NCBI GenBank assembly: GCA_945868215.1
Contig: CAMBLN010000003.1
Span: 1-48,889, forward strand
Source of the DNA: Opitutus sp. GAS368
GTDB lineage: Bacteria > Verrucomicrobiota > Verrucomicrobiia > Opitutales > Opitutaceae
Direction of reading: 5' to 3'
Length of the DNA: 48,889 nt
Shown here: positions 10,579 to 46,160 of the stretch, piece by piece
Position numbering within the stretch: the first letter of the stretch is position 1
Layout of the letters: each line of letters begins with the position of its first letter
The notes under the pieces: model-generated
What the model was told of the DNA's origin: nothing
Databases searched by the model: none
What the model saw: the letters and a program-made list of their open reading frames with translations, nothing else
Position numbers and translations under genes: made by a program

Positions 10579-11469
10579 ATGAAACTCCGCCCGCTTACCG
10601 GCACGATCACCGCCCTCGTAACCCCGTTTAATCCGGATCAATCCGTCGCCTACGACGATCTGCGCAAGCTCGTGGAGTTCCAGATAAAGTCCGGCATCAA
10701 CGGCTTGGTCCCCGTCGGCACCACCGGCGAATCACCCACCCTTTCCCACGAGGAACACCTCGACGTGGTTCGCGCCGTGGTCGAGGCCTCCCGCGGCCGC
10801 GTGCCCGTCATCGCCGGCACCGGCTCCAACTCCACCAAAGAAGCCGTCGAGCTCACCACCCTCGCCACCGAGGCCGGTTCCGACGCCGTCCTGGTCGTCG
10901 CCCCTTATTACAACAAGCCTTCCCAGGAGGGAGTGTATCGCTACTTCGCCGCCGTCGCCGAGGCCACCGACAAGCCGGTTATCCTCTACTCCATCCCCGG
11001 CCGCTGCGGCATTGAAATCAGCGTGTCGGTCGTCGAGCGCCTCCGCGCCAAGTATCCACATGTTCGCTACATTAAAGAGGCCGGCGGTTCCGTTGATCGC
11101 GTGGATCAGCTCAAGCACGCGCTGGGCAAGGACATCACCGTGCTCAGCGGTGACGACAGCCTCACCCTGCCCTTCACCGCCGTCGGTGCCGAGGGCGTCA
11201 TCAGCGTCGCCTCCAATCTCCTGCCCAAGGAGGTCGTGCAACTCGTCAACGCCGCCCTCGCCGGCGACCTCCCCAAGGCCACCAAGCTCCATCGTAAGCT
11301 CTATCCGGTCTTCAAGACCCTCTTCATCGAGCCGAATCCCGTCCCCGTGAAATACGCCCTCGTGCGCGCCGGAATCATCCGCTCGCCGCTCGTGCGCGAA
11401 CCGCTGTCCGAGCTCACCAAGGCCAGCGAGCAAACGCTCCTCGCCGTCCTCAAGTCCTTTGGCAAATAA
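10579..11469 (+). CDS. dapA: 4-hydroxy-tetrahydrodipicolinate synthase
   Basis: First committed enzyme of the diaminopimelate/lysine pathway, condensing pyruvate with aspartate semialdehyde. It is 296 aa, a TIM barrel. The pyruvate-binding GTTGE is at about 47-51, the catalytic Tyr in YSIPGR is Tyr138 and the Schiff-base Lys in YIKEAGG is Lys166. The start is ATG 10579 (MKLRPLTGTITALVTPF); the longer track ORF runs into the intergenic region. dapB follows after 4 bp and ruvA after that, suggesting one transcript. Confidence 0.97.
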   Translation: MKLRPLTGTITALVTPFNPDQSVAYDDLRKLVEFQIKSGINGLVPVGTTGESPTLSHEEHLDVVRAVVEASRGRVPVIAGTGSNSTKEAVELTTLATEAGSDAVLVVAPYYNKPSQEGVYRYFAAVAEATDKPVILYSIPGRCGIEISVSVVERLRAKYPHVRYIKEAGGSVDRVDQLKHALGKDITVLSGDDSLTLPFTAVGAEGVISVASNLLPKEVVQLVNAALAGDLPKATKLHRKLYPVFKTLFIEPNPVPVKYALVRAGIIRSPLVREPLSELTKASEQTLLAVLKSFGK

Positions 11470-11473
11470 CCGC

Positions 11474-12205
11474 ATGTCCCTTCGCATCGCCATCATCGGA
11501 GCCAAGGGCCGCATGGGCCAGGCCAACATCGCCGCCGCCATGGAATCCGGCGCCAGTGTCGTCGCCGCCCTCGATCAGGGCGACGATCTCGCCGCGGGCA
11601 TCGCACAGGCCGACGTCGTCATCGACTTCAGTTTCCACGCGGCCACCGCCAACGTCATCCGCCTGTGCGCACAGCATAAAAAATCGCTCGTCATCGGCAC
11701 CACCGGCCATCCCGCCGAAGAAAAAAAACACCTCCTCGCCGAGGCCGCCGCGATTCCTTGCGTGTGGTCGGGCAACTATTCCGTCGGCGTGAACCTGCTC
11801 TTCGCCCTCACCCGCCGCGCCTCCGCCGTCCTCGGCTCCGATTACGACGCCGAGGTCGTCGAGATGCACCACCGCTTTAAAAAAGACGCCCCCAGCGGCA
11901 CCGCCGCCCGTCTGCTCGAAATCATCCTTGATGAGCGCAAGCTCACCGCCGACGCCCTGCGCCACGGCCGCGAGGGCATCACCGGCGAACGCACCTCTAC
12001 TGAAGTCGGCATTCACGCGTTGCGCGGCGGCGATGTCGTCGGCGACCACACGGTCATGTTCGCCGCCCTCGGCGAACGCATCGAGCTCACCCACAAGGCG
12101 TCCGACCGCGGTATCTTTGCCCGCGGTGCCGTGCGTGCCGCGCAGTGGCTCGCGGACAAGCCTGCCGGTGTTTACGACATGCAGGACGTGCTCGGGTTGA
12201 AGTGA
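11474..12205 (+). CDS. dapB: 4-hydroxy-tetrahydrodipicolinate reductase
   Basis: NAD(P)H-dependent second step after DapA. It is 243 aa from ATG 11474 (MSLRIAIIGAKGRMGQ). The Rossmann glycine motif GAKGRMG is at about 9-15, GTTGH at about 75-79, the catalytic His pair and Lys in MHHRFKKDAPSGT at about 131-143, and the C-terminal dimer segment FARGAVRAAQWL is present. It starts 4 bp after the dapA stop, and ruvA starts 1 bp after its own stop, so translational coupling is likely. Confidence 0.97.
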   Translation: MSLRIAIIGAKGRMGQANIAAAMESGASVVAALDQGDDLAAGIAQADVVIDFSFHAATANVIRLCAQHKKSLVIGTTGHPAEEKKHLLAEAAAIPCVWSGNYSVGVNLLFALTRRASAVLGSDYDAEVVEMHHRFKKDAPSGTAARLLEIILDERKLTADALRHGREGITGERTSTEVGIHALRGGDVVGDHTVMFAALGERIELTHKASDRGIFARGAVRAAQWLADKPAGVYDMQDVLGLK

Positions 12206-39253: not shown

Positions 39254-40765
39254 ATGCCGCCGCTTAATCCTCAATCGATGTCCGAGCAAAAAGACCTCCT
39301 GACCACCAACCGCAAGGCCCTCACGATCAATCTCGACGAGCCCAAATACGGCACGTTCGCCGAAATCGGCGCCGGCCAGGAGGTCGCCCGCATCTTTTTC
39401 CAGGCCGGCGGCGCCGCCGGCACCATCGCCAAATCCATGTCCGCCTACGACATGACGTTCAGCGACGCCATCTACGGCAAGGCCCCGCGCTACGTCTCGC
39501 GCGAGCGCCTCGGCCTCATGCTCGACCACGAATACACCTTGCTACTCGAGCGTCTCGGCGAAAAACGCGGACCCAACACCACCTTCTTCGTCTTCGCCGA
39601 CACCGTCGCCGCCCGCAATTACAAGGGCACCAACGAGGCCCACGGCTGGATGGGCATCCGTTTCCAGACCGAGCCCCACGGCCCGCCCAGCGACCTCATG
39701 ATCCACGTCCGCATGTGGGACAAGGACAAACTCCTCCAGCAACAGGCCCTCGGCATCGTCGGCACCAACCTCATCTACGGAGCCTTCTACTACCGCGACA
39801 ACCCCGAGGAGCTCATCAAATCACTCCTCGATAACATCGGCCCCGACCGCATCGAGGTGGACATGCTCAAGATGAGCGGCCCCGCCTTCGGCCCCGTGGA
39901 CAACCGCCTGATGTCGCTCTACCTCGTGCGTCACAAGCTCACCAACGCCGTCATGTTCGGCCCCGGCGGCGACGTCCTGCAACCGTCCGAGATCCTCTAC
40001 AAAAAAGCCGTCCTCGTGGAGCGCGGCAGTTTCCGCCCCGTCACCCACGTCAACGTCGATATGCTCAACTGCGCCTGCGCCCAGTTCATGCAGGAGCCGC
40101 AGGTAAAGGGCAAAGACGTCGTCGTGCTCATGGAGATCACCATGAACAACCTCCTGGCTTCCGGCGGACTCGACGCGCAGGACTTCCTCTCCCGCGTCGA
40201 TCTGCTCGGCGACATCGGCTTCACCGTGCTGATTTCCGACTACTCCGAGTATTACCGCCTCACGTCCTATTTCCGCCGCTACACGCAGGAGATGATCGGC
40301 GTCGCCCTCGGCATCAACAACCTCCTGGAGATCTTCAACGAGAAGTATTACGAGAACCTCCCCGGCGGTATTCTGGAGAACTTCGGACGTCTCTTCCGCT
40401 ACGCCGTGAAGCTCTACATCTACCCGATGCAGCAGCTCGCCTATGACCGTTACCTCACCGCCGGCCACCCCGCCGCCGTGCCCGAAAACGTCGTCGGTTC
40501 GCCTTTCGCCGCCAACGTCCTGATCAACGCCAAAAACCTCCAGGTCGAGGCGCACCTCAGCAACCTCTACGCTCACTTGCTGGAGAACCACTACATCGAG
40601 TGCATCGTCGGCTACGACAAATCCATCCTCAGCATCTTCTCGCGCGACGTCCTGCAACGCATCCAGAACAACGACGCCACTTGGGAAACGATGGTCCCCC
40701 CGCTCGTCGCCACCGCCATCAAAAAACGCGGCCTCTTCGGCCACACCGCCCCGCTGCCCGCCTAG
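39254..40765 (+). CDS. Conserved protein of unknown function (often named TonB-receptor or nicotinate-nucleotide adenylyltransferase)
   Basis: 503 aa from ATG 39254 (an ATG at 39278, MSEQKDLL, is also plausible). Shares the strongly conserved start with many phyla: NRKALTINLDEPKYGTFAEI, GAGQEVARIFFQAGGAAGTI and AKSMSAYDMTFSDAIYG. No signal peptide, transmembrane helix or beta-barrel, so the TonB-receptor name used for some relatives is not supported. No HIGH-type or other nucleotidyl-transfer motif is apparent, so the adenylyltransferase label is doubtful too. It is probably cytoplasmic. The 743-aa track ORF is an extension through sppA. A 186-bp element follows one base after the stop. Confidence 0.8.
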   Translation: MPPLNPQSMSEQKDLLTTNRKALTINLDEPKYGTFAEIGAGQEVARIFFQAGGAAGTIAKSMSAYDMTFSDAIYGKAPRYVSRERLGLMLDHEYTLLLERLGEKRGPNTTFFVFADTVAARNYKGTNEAHGWMGIRFQTEPHGPPSDLMIHVRMWDKDKLLQQQALGIVGTNLIYGAFYYRDNPEELIKSLLDNIGPDRIEVDMLKMSGPAFGPVDNRLMSLYLVRHKLTNAVMFGPGGDVLQPSEILYKKAVLVERGSFRPVTHVNVDMLNCACAQFMQEPQVKGKDVVVLMEITMNNLLASGGLDAQDFLSRVDLLGDIGFTVLISDYSEYYRLTSYFRRYTQEMIGVALGINNLLEIFNEKYYENLPGGILENFGRLFRYAVKLYIYPMQQLAYDRYLTAGHPAAVPENVVGSPFAANVLINAKNLQVEAHLSNLYAHLLENHYIECIVGYDKSILSIFSRDVLQRIQNNDATWETMVPPLVATAIKKRGLFGHTAPLPA

Positions 40766-41362: not shown

Positions 41363-42217
41363 ATGCGCTTCTACAAATACCACGCCCTCGGCAACGACTA
41401 CATCGTCTGCGATCCCGTTGATTTCCCCCAGTGGAAAAACGGTCCGTCCGTCGACGAGATCCGCGTTATCTGCCACCGCAACTTCGGCGTCGGCTCCGAC
41501 GGCATTCTCTGGGGTCCGCTCCCTTCCGAAAAATCCGAATTCGGCCTGCGCATCTTCAACCCCGACGGCTCCGAGGCCGAAAAATCCGGCAACGGCCTGC
41601 GCATTTTCTCGCGCTATCTTTGGGATCAAAAACTCGCCAAAAACGCCACGTTCACCATCGAAACGCCCGGCGGCCAGGTCACGTCCGTCATCAAAGAAGA
41701 CGGCAAACTCATCACCGTGGACATGGGCTCGGTCTCCTTCGTGAGCACCAAAATCCCGCACACCGGCCCCGAGCGCGAGGTCATCAACGAACAGATCACC
41801 GTCCTCGACCGCACGTTCACCTACTGCTCCGCCACCATCGGCAACCCGCATTGCGTGCTGCCGCTCCCCGAGGTCTCCGCCGAGCTCGCCCACAAATACG
41901 GCCCGCACCTCGAAACCCACGCCAACTTCCCGCGCAAAACCAACGTCCAGTTCCTGCAGGTCCTCGACCGCAAAAACATCCGCATCGAGATCTGGGAACG
42001 CGGCGCCGGCTACACGCTCGCTTCCGGCAGCAGCTCCAGCGCCGCCGCCTCGGTCGCCCACAAGCTCGGTCTCGTGGACAACGACATCACCGTCCACATG
42101 CCAGGCGGCACCATCGGCATCGAGATCGGCGCCAACTACGCGATCCGCATGACCGGCACCGTCAACAAAGTCGCCGTCGGCGACATGCACCCGCAGCTCT
42201 TCGAGGTCAAAGTCTGA
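41363..42217 (+). CDS. Diaminopimelate epimerase-like protein with Ser at both Cys sites
   Basis: 284 aa, full DapF fold and length: FYKYHALGNDYIV (about 3-15), FNPDGSEAEKSGNGLR (about 66-80), SATIGNPHCVLP (about 156-167) and WERGAGYTLASGS (about 211-223). In DapF both catalytic bases are Cys (CGNG and ACGTG). Here they are Ser75 (KSGNG) and Ser221 (ASGS), and the usual GAGET Glu is Tyr217. So true LL/meso-DAP epimerase activity is in doubt; it may be a divergent subfamily with another substrate or mechanism. dapA and dapB lie elsewhere in the window. Gene name dapF is tempting but not proven. Confidence 0.88.
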   Translation: MRFYKYHALGNDYIVCDPVDFPQWKNGPSVDEIRVICHRNFGVGSDGILWGPLPSEKSEFGLRIFNPDGSEAEKSGNGLRIFSRYLWDQKLAKNATFTIETPGGQVTSVIKEDGKLITVDMGSVSFVSTKIPHTGPEREVINEQITVLDRTFTYCSATIGNPHCVLPLPEVSAELAHKYGPHLETHANFPRKTNVQFLQVLDRKNIRIEIWERGAGYTLASGSSSSAAASVAHKLGLVDNDITVHMPGGTIGIEIGANYAIRMTGTVNKVAVGDMHPQLFEVKV

Positions 42218-43000: not shown

Positions 43001-43092
43001 AGCCCTTCGTGAGTCTCACGCGGCGTCGTTTTGTTCCAGTCGCAAATCCCGTTGTTGCTGAAACGAAAAATCCACCCCTACGTTGTGTGCAC

Positions 43093-44571
43093 ATGGGATG
43101 GATCGCCGATTTTTTCCGCCTCGCCTGGGGATTCCTTTACTGGAACTCGCGCAAGACGGCCTACCGCCTGCGGCTGAAACGCGGCCGCGGTCGTTGCCCT
43201 TGCCAGCATCCCAGTGATTCCGGCCGGGCCATCGAAACCGGCTGCGCCGCCATGATCCATTGGAACGATCCCGCGCGTTTCCGCCGCCTGTGCCCGTTGC
43301 TTCAACAAATCGACTCCGGCGCGTGGCGTTGCTCCGTCAACCGCACCGAGGTCCGTCCGTTCTGGAGCCGCGCCTTCGCCTTTTACGGCGCCTCCGTGGT
43401 GATCGTCTATCTGGTCGCCACCTTCTCCGTCTTCGCCTTCATGCGCAATGTCGGCTACCCCGTCACCTACCCCGGCGTTCTCTGGCCCCCCGCCTGGGAA
43501 AAATTCACCGCCATCCGCACCGACTTTTTCCTCAACCAATACCGAACCGCCGCGCAGGCGGGCGACACCCAGGCGGCCCTCATGTCGCTGTCCACCGCCT
43601 ACAATCTGGATCCGCAAAACTACGCCGCCGGCCGCCAGCTCGCCCAGGCCTGGCAGATCGGCCAGCCCGGTCTCTCCAACCAGATCTATCGCCGTCTCCT
43701 CGCCGACCACCCTTCCGAGGCCGAGGCCACCGCCCAAGTCTGGTTCCGCGCCTTGCTCGCCCGTGGAGATTTTCGCGAAGTCGAAAAACTCGCCGTCAAA
43801 CGCATCAACGCCGCCCCCGCGCAATCCGCCGCCTGGCTGAACGCCTTCCTCTTCGCCAACCGGCGCACCGGCGACGCGTCCTTGCGCCGTCATCTCGCGG
43901 AAACTCCCTCCCTCCCGCCTGCCGCCCGGTTCCTGCTCCCTCTCGCCGACAGCCTTCAAGGCGCACCTCCCGGCCGCCAGCGCACGGTTCTGATCTCGGC
44001 CGCGGCCGGTGCCGGCGACTCGTTGTCCTTCTTTCATGTCTGCCGCGAACTGCTCTCACGCGGTCTGGCCAACGAAACCCTCGAATGGCTCGAACGTCGC
44101 GCCGGACTCCTCGGCCCGCGCGACGTTATGCCCCTCCGTCTCGACGCCCTTGCCACGCTCGGCTGGACCTCCACCTTGCGCAGCGAGGTCGAAAACCTCC
44201 TGGTCACCGATCCCGATCCGGTCGTCGTGGAATTGCTCAGCGCACATCTCATCCGTCATCCCGATGCCGCCGTGCGCGCCATGGTCTTCCCCCGGCTGGA
44301 TCGCACGCCTTTGCCTTCCACGCCCGCCAGTTATTCGGCCTACCTGTCGCTGTTTTGCGCCGCGGGAGTCGGCGAGGATATCGAGCGCCTTCGCTGGACC
44401 GCCGCCCGCATCAAGGCGTTTGTTCAAGCGGATTTCCGCAGCTTGGATGTGATCGGCGAGGGTCTTCTTGAGGGCAACCGCCGGCGCATCGAGAACTACC
44501 TCCCGGCATTGCAACCGCTCCCGCTCGAGGTCACCTACGCCTTGTTCGAGCACTACGCCCCCGCCTCCTGA
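43093..44571 (+). CDS. Membrane protein with TPR-like repeats, upstream of exosortase
   Basis: 492 aa from ATG 43093 (MGWIADFFRLAWGFLYWNSR). Residues 25-75 hold Cys residues (GRCPCQHPSD and others) that could bind zinc. A transmembrane helix is at about 96-120 (YGASVVIVYLVATFSVFAF). The rest is helical and looks like TPR/Sel1-type repeats (ALMSLSTAYNLDPQNYAAG at about 177). The stop overlaps the exosortase start (TGATG), so the products are probably made together. Role likely in exopolysaccharide or protein sorting with the exosortase; inferred only from position. Confidence 0.75.
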   Translation: MGWIADFFRLAWGFLYWNSRKTAYRLRLKRGRGRCPCQHPSDSGRAIETGCAAMIHWNDPARFRRLCPLLQQIDSGAWRCSVNRTEVRPFWSRAFAFYGASVVIVYLVATFSVFAFMRNVGYPVTYPGVLWPPAWEKFTAIRTDFFLNQYRTAAQAGDTQAALMSLSTAYNLDPQNYAAGRQLAQAWQIGQPGLSNQIYRRLLADHPSEAEATAQVWFRALLARGDFREVEKLAVKRINAAPAQSAAWLNAFLFANRRTGDASLRRHLAETPSLPPAARFLLPLADSLQGAPPGRQRTVLISAAAGAGDSLSFFHVCRELLSRGLANETLEWLERRAGLLGPRDVMPLRLDALATLGWTSTLRSEVENLLVTDPDPVVVELLSAHLIRHPDAAVRAMVFPRLDRTPLPSTPASYSAYLSLFCAAGVGEDIERLRWTAARIKAFVQADFRSLDVIGEGLLEGNRRRIENYLPALQPLPLEVTYALFEHYAPAS

Positions 44572-46160
44572 TGTCCTCGTCATCCCGCCCAGTCTCCCTC
44601 TCCGTGACCGGCTGGATCGTGGTCAGCCTGGGCGCCCTGCTCACCTTGGCCTTCTGCCTGCACATGTTGCCGGAGTGGTTGAACAACCCCGACCTCTCCC
44701 ACGGCCTGTTCGCCCCGCTGCTGTTTGTTCTGCTGATCAACGAAAGCCGGCGGCGCGGTCCGTGGCGTTATCCAACCGACACGACCGGTCTGCGCCTCCT
44801 GCGCGCCGGGGCCCTGACCGGCGGCGTGGCCTTCGTCGTCATCGCCGGACTCTATGCCGCCACCGTCGAGTGGACGCATCCATTGGTCGGTCTTTCGCTC
44901 TCTCTCGCGTTGTCCGCCCTGCTCTTCGCCGCGCTCCTGTGGTTTTCCACCACGCGCGTCATGCCGCTCAACTGGGCCTCGCTGGTCGCCGTCGCCCTGT
45001 GGCCGATGTGCGCACCCATCCCGCCCGGAACGTATTCCCTGCTCACGCTGCAACTCCAGTTTTGGGTCACCGACATCGTGCTCCACTCGCTGCACTTGCT
45101 CGGCGTCGCCGCCACCACTTCGGGCAACATCATCCAACTCGCCCACACCAGCGTCGGCGTCGAGGAGGCGTGCAGCGGCGTGCGCAGTCTTCTCTCCTGC
45201 GTCGTCGCCGCCGTGTTTTTTTCCGCCACGCTCGTCCGCCGTCCGTGGGCCCGCGTGTTGCTCATCGTCCTCGCGCCCGTGCTCGCGTTTGGCATGAACA
45301 TCCTTCGCTCGCTCGCCCTCACGTTGCTCGCCAACTCGGGCGTGGACATCGGCGGCAGCTGGCACGATATCACCGGCTTTGCCGTGCTCGGCATCACCGC
45401 CGCCATCCTCGGCGGACTCGCCTTGTGGCTGGAAGACAACTCCCCCGTTACAGCCGCGCCCGCCACCGTCGCGCCCACCCGCCCGCCGCGCCCGTGGGGC
45501 CTTCTCTCCAGCTTCACCCTCGCGACCGTTCTCGTCGGCTTTTTTGTCCTCAACACCCACGGTCCTTCCCGCGAATCAGGCCCCCCGCCCGACATGAATG
45601 CCCTCCTCCCGCTCGCCCCCGCCGGCTGGGATATCGTCCGCACCGAGGATCTTTATCAATTCACCCCCGTTCTCGAAACCGAGCACCTCATCCAACGCAC
45701 CTACGTCCGTCGTCGCGTCACCACCAAGGGCGACGATCCCCTGCAAATCACCGTCTACCTCGCCTACTGGACGCCCGGAAAAGTCCCCGTCAGCCTCGTC
45801 GCCGCGCACACGCCCGAAGCCTGCTGGCCCGGCGGTGGCTGGATCACCCAACCCGTCACACCCTTCGGCCATCCGTTTCTTGTCTCCGGCCACGCGCTCC
45901 CTCCCCCCGAATTCCGTGCGTTCACCAACTCCGGCTTTCTGCAGAACGTCTGGTATTGGCATCTCTACGATGGCCGTTCCATCACCCAAAAAGACCCGCG
46001 CTCCGCCGTCGCCCCCCTGCAACTCGCCTGGCGCTACGGTTTCCGCACTTCCGGCGAACAGATGTTCGTCCGCGTCTCCAGCAACCATCCGTGGGACCAC
46101 ATCAACGCCGAGCCCCTCCTCGTCGAAATCCTCCGCGGACTCCAACCTTTCGGCCTCTGA
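44571..46160 (+). CDS. Exosortase fused to an EpsI-like domain
   Basis: 529 aa. The exosortase part (about 1-300) has about eight transmembrane helices and the catalytic triad: Cys201 in VEEACSGVRSLLSC, Arg246 in MNILRSLAL and His265 in SWHDITGF. The C-terminal part (about 330-525) is an EpsI/DUF3485-like domain with HTPEACWPGGGW and a conserved Cys. It probably cleaves and transfers PEP-CTERM-type sorted proteins to an envelope polymer. Starts in the TGA of the upstream gene. No PEP-CTERM substrate was seen in the window. Confidence 0.9.
   Translation: MSSSSRPVSLSVTGWIVVSLGALLTLAFCLHMLPEWLNNPDLSHGLFAPLLFVLLINESRRRGPWRYPTDTTGLRLLRAGALTGGVAFVVIAGLYAATVEWTHPLVGLSLSLALSALLFAALLWFSTTRVMPLNWASLVAVALWPMCAPIPPGTYSLLTLQLQFWVTDIVLHSLHLLGVAATTSGNIIQLAHTSVGVEEACSGVRSLLSCVVAAVFFSATLVRRPWARVLLIVLAPVLAFGMNILRSLALTLLANSGVDIGGSWHDITGFAVLGITAAILGGLALWLEDNSPVTAAPATVAPTRPPRPWGLLSSFTLATVLVGFFVLNTHGPSRESGPPPDMNALLPLAPAGWDIVRTEDLYQFTPVLETEHLIQRTYVRRRVTTKGDDPLQITVYLAYWTPGKVPVSLVAAHTPEACWPGGGWITQPVTPFGHPFLVSGHALPPPEFRAFTNSGFLQNVWYWHLYDGRSITQKDPRSAVAPLQLAWRYGFRTSGEQMFVRVSSNHPWDHINAEPLLVEILRGLQPFGL

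What the first reader, a model, noticed from the sequence alone, without database searches (positions are those of the whole stretch)
41363..42217. DapF-like epimerase with both catalytic Cys replaced by Ser
In DapF two Cys act as acid/base. Here Ser75 and Ser221 take their places, GAGET is GAGYT and the loop is SGSSSS instead of CGTG. All other motifs and the length are kept, and there is no decay. It is either a divergent subfamily with a different mechanism or substrate, or a DAP epimerase that works with Ser. With dapA and dapB in the same genome, the source of meso-DAP is an open question.
Basis: partly seen in the sequence, partly recalled or inferred. Interest (0 to 1): 0.7.

Follow-up and report, generated by a model that had tools for sequence, protein, structure and literature searches.

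The report
Serine-for-cysteine DAP epimerase clade
This gene belongs to a large, ancient and apparently unremarked branch of the enzyme that makes the cell-wall building block meso-diaminopimelate, in which the two cysteines thought essential for the chemistry are always serines, and in this genome it is the only such enzyme found.

Summary
The ORF at 41363-42217 is an intact 284-aa DapF-type protein (TIGR00652, 230 bits, cut-off 114.65) with Ser75 and Ser221 where DapF has its catalytic cysteines. It is neither an error nor a relic. The same Ser/Ser pair occurs in 219 fetched sequences (158 at <90% identity) across Verrucomicrobiota and about ten other phyla. They form one clade (100/100 support with the motif columns removed) and share a signature (K74, S75, Q196, Y217, S221, S224). 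Both serine codon families are used; Cys is never seen.

It is the only DapF in its genome, which has dapA, dapB, dapL, lysA and a DNPR-type murE but no ddh. Among 94 genomes of the order, 73 have only Ser/Ser, 11 only Cys/Cys, none was seen with both. In one genus, one species has Ddh and no DapF, another Ser/Ser DapF and no Ddh. The DAP-contacting residues are kept.

Best reading: a working LL-DAP epimerase that uses two helix-N-cap serines as its acid/base pair. Activity is unproven, and Cys-to-Ser mutants of an ordinary relative are nearly dead. Ser/Cys and Ser/Thr pairs are known in the related proline-racemase superfamily; I found no report of Ser/Ser.

The parts
41363..42217 (+). dapF-like gene, Ser/Ser type, 284 aa
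   Evidence: TIGR00652 230.2 bits, Pfam PF01678 193.7 bits, AlphaFold2 model pLDDT 97.1, closest solved fold Anabaena DapF 9mro TM 0.92
41582..41587 (+). codons of Lys74 and Ser75 (Ser75 in place of the first catalytic Cys)
   Evidence: Ser in 219/219 and Lys in 216/219 of the clade; Cys and mostly Met in Cys-type DapF; sequence
42011..42013 (+). codon of Tyr217 (GAGYT)
   Evidence: Tyr in 218/219 of the clade; E, I, V or P in Cys-type
42023..42025 (+). codon of Ser221, in place of the second catalytic Cys
   Evidence: Ser in 219/219 of the clade, Cys in all Cys-type
42032..42034 (+). codon of Ser224, three residues after Ser221, in place of an otherwise invariant Gly
   Evidence: Ser 218/219 in the clade, Gly 25/25 in classical Cys-type; the corresponding Gly227 amide lies in H-bond distance of the catalytic sulfur in Anabaena DapF (PMC12039745)
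10579..11469 (+). dapA-like gene (upstream pathway step), about 30 kb from dapF
   Evidence: ORF; named by eye from its sequence, no family search was run on it
11459..12205 (+). dapB (upstream pathway step)
   Evidence: Pfam DapB_N 81.6 bits and DapB_C 157.2 bits

Best explanation
The protein is the organism's diaminopimelate epimerase, of a monophyletic Ser/Ser branch of the DapF family. It converts LL-DAP, made by DapA, DapB and DapL, into meso-DAP for MurE (cell wall) and LysA (lysine). Proposed mechanism: the two domains close on LL-DAP; the distal L-amino-acid end is held by Asn66, Asn161, Asn194, Glu212 and Arg213; the reacting alpha carbon sits between the N-termini of helices 76-88 and 222-234, where Ser75 and Ser221 act as the two acid/base groups on opposite faces, as Cys73 and Cys217 do in H. 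influenzae DapF. The high pKa of serine would be offset by the helix dipoles and by changes fixed together with the serines (Ser224 for Gly, Lys74 for Met, Tyr217, Gln196). Shown here: sequence, single origin, conservation, predicted fold, gene complement, alternation with Cys/Cys DapF and one with Ddh. Inferred: catalytic activity, the serines as the actual acid and base, and the roles of K74, Q196, Y217 and S224.
For: Only DapF in a 99.8% complete genome that has DapL 565 bits, LysA 451 bits, MurE 531 bits with the DNPR motif and no Ddh. In the order, 73 genomes have Ser/Ser and 11 Cys/Cys, none fetched with both; DapL is present in 48/73 and 9/11, so both forms serve the same pathway. G074 (97% complete) has no DapF but Ddh at 462 bits; its congener G093 has Ser/Ser DapF and no Ddh. 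Eight Ser/Ser genomes without any LysA match still keep the gene, as expected for a cell-wall role. In 18 genomes outside the order with Ser/Ser as the only DapF, none has Ddh over the cut-off and 11 have LysA over it. DAP-contact residues N66, N161, N194, E212, R213 invariant, N11 in 217/219. One clade, 100/100. Ser kept while its codons switch between TCN and AGY; dN/dS 0.06-0.29. Precedent in the same fold: a Ser/Cys 4-hydroxyproline epimerase and a Ser/Thr dehydratase, the Ser held by the residue at i+3 (PMC4113996). DAP found in Opitutaceae cells (PMC5303756).
Against: No activity data. Cys-to-Ser mutants of the related histidine racemase have greatly reduced turnover (PMC11602996), and such mutants of DapF-fold enzymes are used to hinder catalysis (PMC12039745). 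Three Opitutaceae have a Ddh-like gene as well. About a dozen genomes in other phyla hold Ser/Ser beside a Cys/Cys DapF, where the Ser/Ser copy need not be the DAP epimerase. The stereochemistry of DAP in Opitutaceae walls is not established: DAP is low and TLC did not show DL-DAP (PMC5303756).
Confidence: 0.68

Rival explanations
1. It is a DAP epimerase, but other side chains carry the proton: Lys74, Tyr217 or the invariant Cys37, the serines only positioning substrate or water.
For: Lys74 and Tyr217 are almost fixed in the clade and absent from Cys-type enzymes; Cys37 is in all 219. Alanine racemase uses a Lys/Tyr pair, though with PLP (PMC8142540).
Against: Lys74 is Val or Ile in three members and Tyr217 is His in one, while both serines are in all 219. 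Cys37 is also common (48%) in classical Cys-type DapF, where it is not catalytic. The serines sit exactly at the catalytic positions at the N-caps of the two helices.
Confidence: 0.13
2. It is a racemase or epimerase of another substrate (for example ornithine, glutamate or a peptide-linked residue), and meso-DAP comes from an unknown route.
For: Ornithine was found beside DAP in Opitutaceae (PMC5303756); the own genome has no MurI match and the Chlamydia DapF also racemises glutamate (PMC5885031); in several phyla the gene coexists with a Cys/Cys DapF.
Against: The distal DAP-binding residues are invariant in 219/219. MurI presence varies among congeners with the same dapF type. The gene alternates with Cys/Cys DapF in the order. 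It is far below the cut-off of the bifunctional DapF/glutamate racemase model (69.7 against 350).
Confidence: 0.12
3. A catalytically dead DapF kept for a structural or regulatory role, like the enzyme-independent stimulation of RppH by E. coli DapF.
For: E. coli DapF with both catalytic Cys changed to Ala still binds and stimulates RppH (PMC4227774).
Against: No other meso-DAP source is found in genomes with LysA and MurE; the substrate site is fully kept; serine rather than a mixture of residues is kept at both sites.
Confidence: 0.05
4. Sequencing error or decaying gene.
For: None found.
Against: 219 sequences from many assemblies, intact frames, both serine codon families, dN/dS well below 1.
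Confidence: 0.01

Closest known systems
Diaminopimelate epimerase DapF, classical Cys/Cys type (H. influenzae, E. coli, Arabidopsis 3ejx, Anabaena 9mro)
   Same: Fold (TM 0.92 to 9mro), length, proximal and distal DAP-contact residues, place in the lysine/cell-wall pathway
   Different: Both catalytic Cys are Ser; Gly at 224 is Ser; Met74 is Lys; Glu196 is Gln; Tyr at 217; separate clade with 100/100 support
Chlamydia-like DapF, bifunctional DAP epimerase/glutamate racemase (NF038284; PMC5885031)
   Same: Same superfamily; related Cys/Cys forms replace the Ser/Ser gene in 11 genomes of the order
   Different: Those proteins have Cys/Cys and TGVPH instead of GNPH; the window protein scores 69.7 against a cut-off of 350
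4-hydroxyproline 2-epimerase with Ser93/Cys255 and trans-3-hydroxyproline dehydratase with Ser90/Thr256 (proline racemase superfamily, PMC4113996)
   Same: Same two-domain fold; Ser as a catalytic acid/base at one of the two positions; Ser held by the residue at i+3, the same spacing as Ser221/Ser224 (spacing only)
   Different: Only one of the two is Ser in the epimerase; different substrate; 14-15% identity
Laboratory Cys-to-Ser mutants: H. influenzae DapF C73S and C217S (2q9h, 2q9j), HisR C67S and C209S (PMC11602996), CntK C72S (6jiw)
   Same: Ser at the catalytic position
   Different: Single mutants, strongly impaired or used to hinder catalysis, without the co-fixed residues of the natural clade

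Membership tests
DapF (TIGR00652, diaminopimelate epimerase) | Score above the curated cut-off over the whole length | tested here: met
   230.2 bits against 114.65, residues 1-275
DapF (TIGR00652, diaminopimelate epimerase) | Two-domain DapF fold with the catalytic positions at the N-termini of two opposed helices | tested here: met
   Model pLDDT 97.1, residues 75 and 221 directly before helices 76-88 and 222-234; TM 0.92 to 9mro
DapF (TIGR00652, diaminopimelate epimerase) | Residues binding both ends of DAP (N11, N66, N161, N194, E212, R213) | tested here: met
   N11 in 217/219, the others invariant in the clade, mapped on 8qzy and compared with the Anabaena contacts
DapF (TIGR00652, diaminopimelate epimerase) | Two catalytic cysteines | tested here: not met
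   Ser75 and Ser221 in all 219 members; hence not filed as an ordinary DapF but as a Ser/Ser sister clade that probably works like one
DapF (TIGR00652, diaminopimelate epimerase) | LL-DAP to meso-DAP epimerase activity | not testable with these tools
   Only indirect: gene complement and alternation with Cys/Cys DapF and Ddh
Bifunctional DapF/glutamate racemase (NF038284) | Score above the curated cut-off | tested here: not met
   69.7 bits against 350
Proline racemase / hydroxyproline epimerase superfamily | Sequence and fold closer to this superfamily than to DapF | tested here: not met
   All sequence matches in the PDB are DapF or O-ureidoserine racemase; hydroxyproline epimerases match at 13-17% identity, far behind DapF

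The most novel reading that the evidence does not exclude
A widespread natural class of cofactor-independent amino-acid epimerase that deprotonates and reprotonates an unactivated alpha carbon with two serine hydroxyls and no catalytic thiol, made workable by co-evolved residues (S224, K74, Y217, Q196), and so insensitive to thiol oxidation and to thiol-directed DapF inhibitors.
Probability: 0.55. Interest if true: 0.8.

Novelty: new variant of a known kind. Interest (0 to 1): 0.62.

Why it matters
DapF is the textbook two-cysteine epimerase, and how a weak thiolate base can remove a proton of pKa about 29 is an old question of mechanism (PMC12039745, PMC8142540). A natural, widespread and apparently needed Ser/Ser version with its own set of co-fixed substitutions gives a direct way to ask what the thiols are for. 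It also matters for annotation: a rule that requires the two cysteines would reject the only DAP epimerase candidate of many genomes. Aziridine DapF inhibitors bind covalently to the cysteines and may fail on it, and it may escape oxidative inactivation (an oxidised C. glutamicum DapF structure, 5h2g, is known); both are inferences.

Tried and rejected
Sequence error or pseudogene: rejected (many homologues, dN/dS 0.06-0.29). A second DapF hidden in the genome: none found. Ddh in this genome: none. A new clade-specific cysteine that could stand in: none clear; Cys37 is invariant but also common in Cys-type DapF, Cys164 has exceptions. A natural-product cluster around Ser/Ser genes in genomes that also hold a Cys/Cys DapF: nothing obvious in the ORFs of L119, L120, L139, L151, L165, L167 (read by eye, no family search). 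Bifunctional DapF/glutamate racemase: far under cut-off. Bias: the scan that found members in other phyla used the motifs WERG[AV]GYT and GNPHCV, so the share of Ser/Ser outside Verrucomicrobiota cannot be read from it; the numbers for the order are not affected. Two paper searches failed on term syntax. No paper on a Ser/Ser DapF was found in the open-access library; most subscription journals are not in it.

Full report
Observation. The ORF 41363-42217 (+) encodes 284 aa with no internal stop. It scores 230.2 bits on TIGR00652 DapF (cut-off 114.65) and 193.7 bits on Pfam DAP_epimerase; it is 33-39% identical to the closest solved DapFs. The residues aligned with the two catalytic cysteines are Ser75 (TCC, 41585-41587) and Ser221 (TCC, 42023-42025).

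Spread and origin. Among 94 genomes of the order, 86 have a DapF: 73 Ser/Ser, 11 Cys/Cys, one Ser/Cys (L077, in a 1.0-Mb genome) and one unread fragment. The domain search lists two matches, that is one protein, in nearly every genome; G077 has a third match that was not examined. A scan of named species genomes with an alignment of the group found Ser/Ser members labelled Cyanobacteria, Desulfobacteraceae, SAR324, Planctomycetota, Chloroflexota, Spirochaetota, Bacillota (Desulfosporosinus hippei), Nitrospirota, Dadabacteria, Rokubacteria, Armatimonadota and Aquificota. Many of these are metagenome bins, and the motif-based scan enriches for this type. Of 264 fetched sequences with both positions readable, 219 are Ser/Ser (158 at <90% identity), 44 Cys/Cys and one Ser/Cys. 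All Ser/Ser sequences form one clade: SH-aLRT 96 with all columns, and bootstrap/SH-aLRT 100/100 in a 68-row tree without the motif columns and the longest branches. The trees are unrooted; the direction Cys to Ser is inferred from the Cys/Cys state of the rest of the family.

Selection on serine. Position 75 uses TCN (87) and AGY (132) codons, position 221 TCN (202) and AGC (16), with no Cys codon in the clade. Passing between the two serine codon families needs two changes, yet only serine is seen. dN/dS against congeners and family members is 0.06-0.29.

What changed with the serines. Against 25 classical Cys-type sequences the clade has fixed Lys74 (Met there), Gln196 (Glu), Tyr217 (mostly Glu), Ser224 (Gly in 25/25) and Ile81 (Cys). 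In Anabaena DapF the amide of the residue corresponding to 224 lies in hydrogen-bonding distance of the second catalytic sulfur, and no basic residue is within 4 A of either sulfur (PMC12039745). So two of the changes, Ser224 and Lys74, lie next to the two catalytic positions. What did not change is the DAP-binding site: N66, N161, N194, E212 and R213 are invariant and N11 is in 217/219.

Structure. The AlphaFold2 model has pLDDT 97.1 and pTM 0.92; Ser75 and Ser221 directly precede helices 76-88 and 222-234, as the cysteines do in DapF. The closest solved structure is Anabaena DapF with bound inhibitor, TM 0.92, rmsd 1.9 A.

Pathway. The genome (99.82% complete, 220 contigs) has DapL (565 bits), LysA (451 bits) and MurE (531 bits, DNPR motif); the window itself has a dapA-like ORF and dapB. 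No Ddh and no second DapF were found. Sister genera swap forms: 11 genomes carry a Cys/Cys DapF of another branch instead, 9 of them with DapL. G074 has no DapF but a Ddh of 462 bits, and its congener G093 has Ser/Ser DapF without Ddh over the cut-off. Eight Ser/Ser genomes without a LysA match keep the gene. In 18 genomes outside the order where Ser/Ser is the only DapF, none has Ddh over the cut-off and 11 have LysA over it. Published work found DAP and sacculi in Opitutaceae, with DAP about tenfold lower than in E. coli and ornithine present, and listed a DapF of Lacunisphaera among its DAP genes (PMC5303756).

Mechanism. The best explanation is the DapF reaction with serines as the two acid/base groups. 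In favour: their position, strict conservation, the retained substrate site, and the lack of any other meso-DAP source found. Precedent: Ser/Cys and Ser/Thr enzymes of the related proline-racemase superfamily, where the catalytic Ser is held by the residue at i+3 (PMC4113996); Ser221/Ser224 has that spacing. Against: Cys-to-Ser mutants of the histidine racemase lose most turnover (PMC11602996). The co-fixed residues may be what makes serine workable; that is inference.

Limits. No activity is shown. Where both forms coexist, the role of the Ser/Ser copy is unknown. The LL-DAP source in the 25 Ser/Ser genomes of the order without DapL over the cut-off was not identified; some of those may be assembly gaps. 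Novelty against the literature is judged from an open-access library only.

Noticed in passing
L077:166-969 (genome G092, 1.0 Mb): A natural Ser/Cys hybrid DapF (EMSGNG ... KSCGSG) on a very long branch; its place in the tree is unsure, so it may be an intermediate or an independent change.
   Followed up: partly
genomes G074 and G093 (same genus), L090: One species has Ddh and no DapF, the other Ser/Ser DapF and no Ddh over the cut-off: an apparent one-for-one replacement of the meso-DAP route.
   Followed up: partly
own genome G000 and relatives: No glutamate racemase MurI match in the own genome and in most of the order, while several congeners have one; the D-glutamate source is open.
   Followed up: partly
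L119, L120, L165 (cyanobacteria), L151 (Desulfosporosinus hippei), L139 (gammaproteobacterium): Genomes holding both a Ser/Ser and a Cys/Cys DapF, with no shared neighbourhood around the Ser/Ser gene; probably horizontal transfers.
   Followed up: partly
genomes G014, G015, G022: Ser/Ser DapF together with a Ddh-family gene of 312-324 bits; whether both are active is unknown.
   Followed up: no
window 39260-40765 (+): Long ORF of about 500 aa upstream of dapF with no Pfam match at 1e-6.
   Followed up: no
window 43009-46160 (+): A 520-aa ORF without Pfam match directly before an exosortase (EpsH family with DUF3485 C-terminal domain) gene.
   Followed up: no
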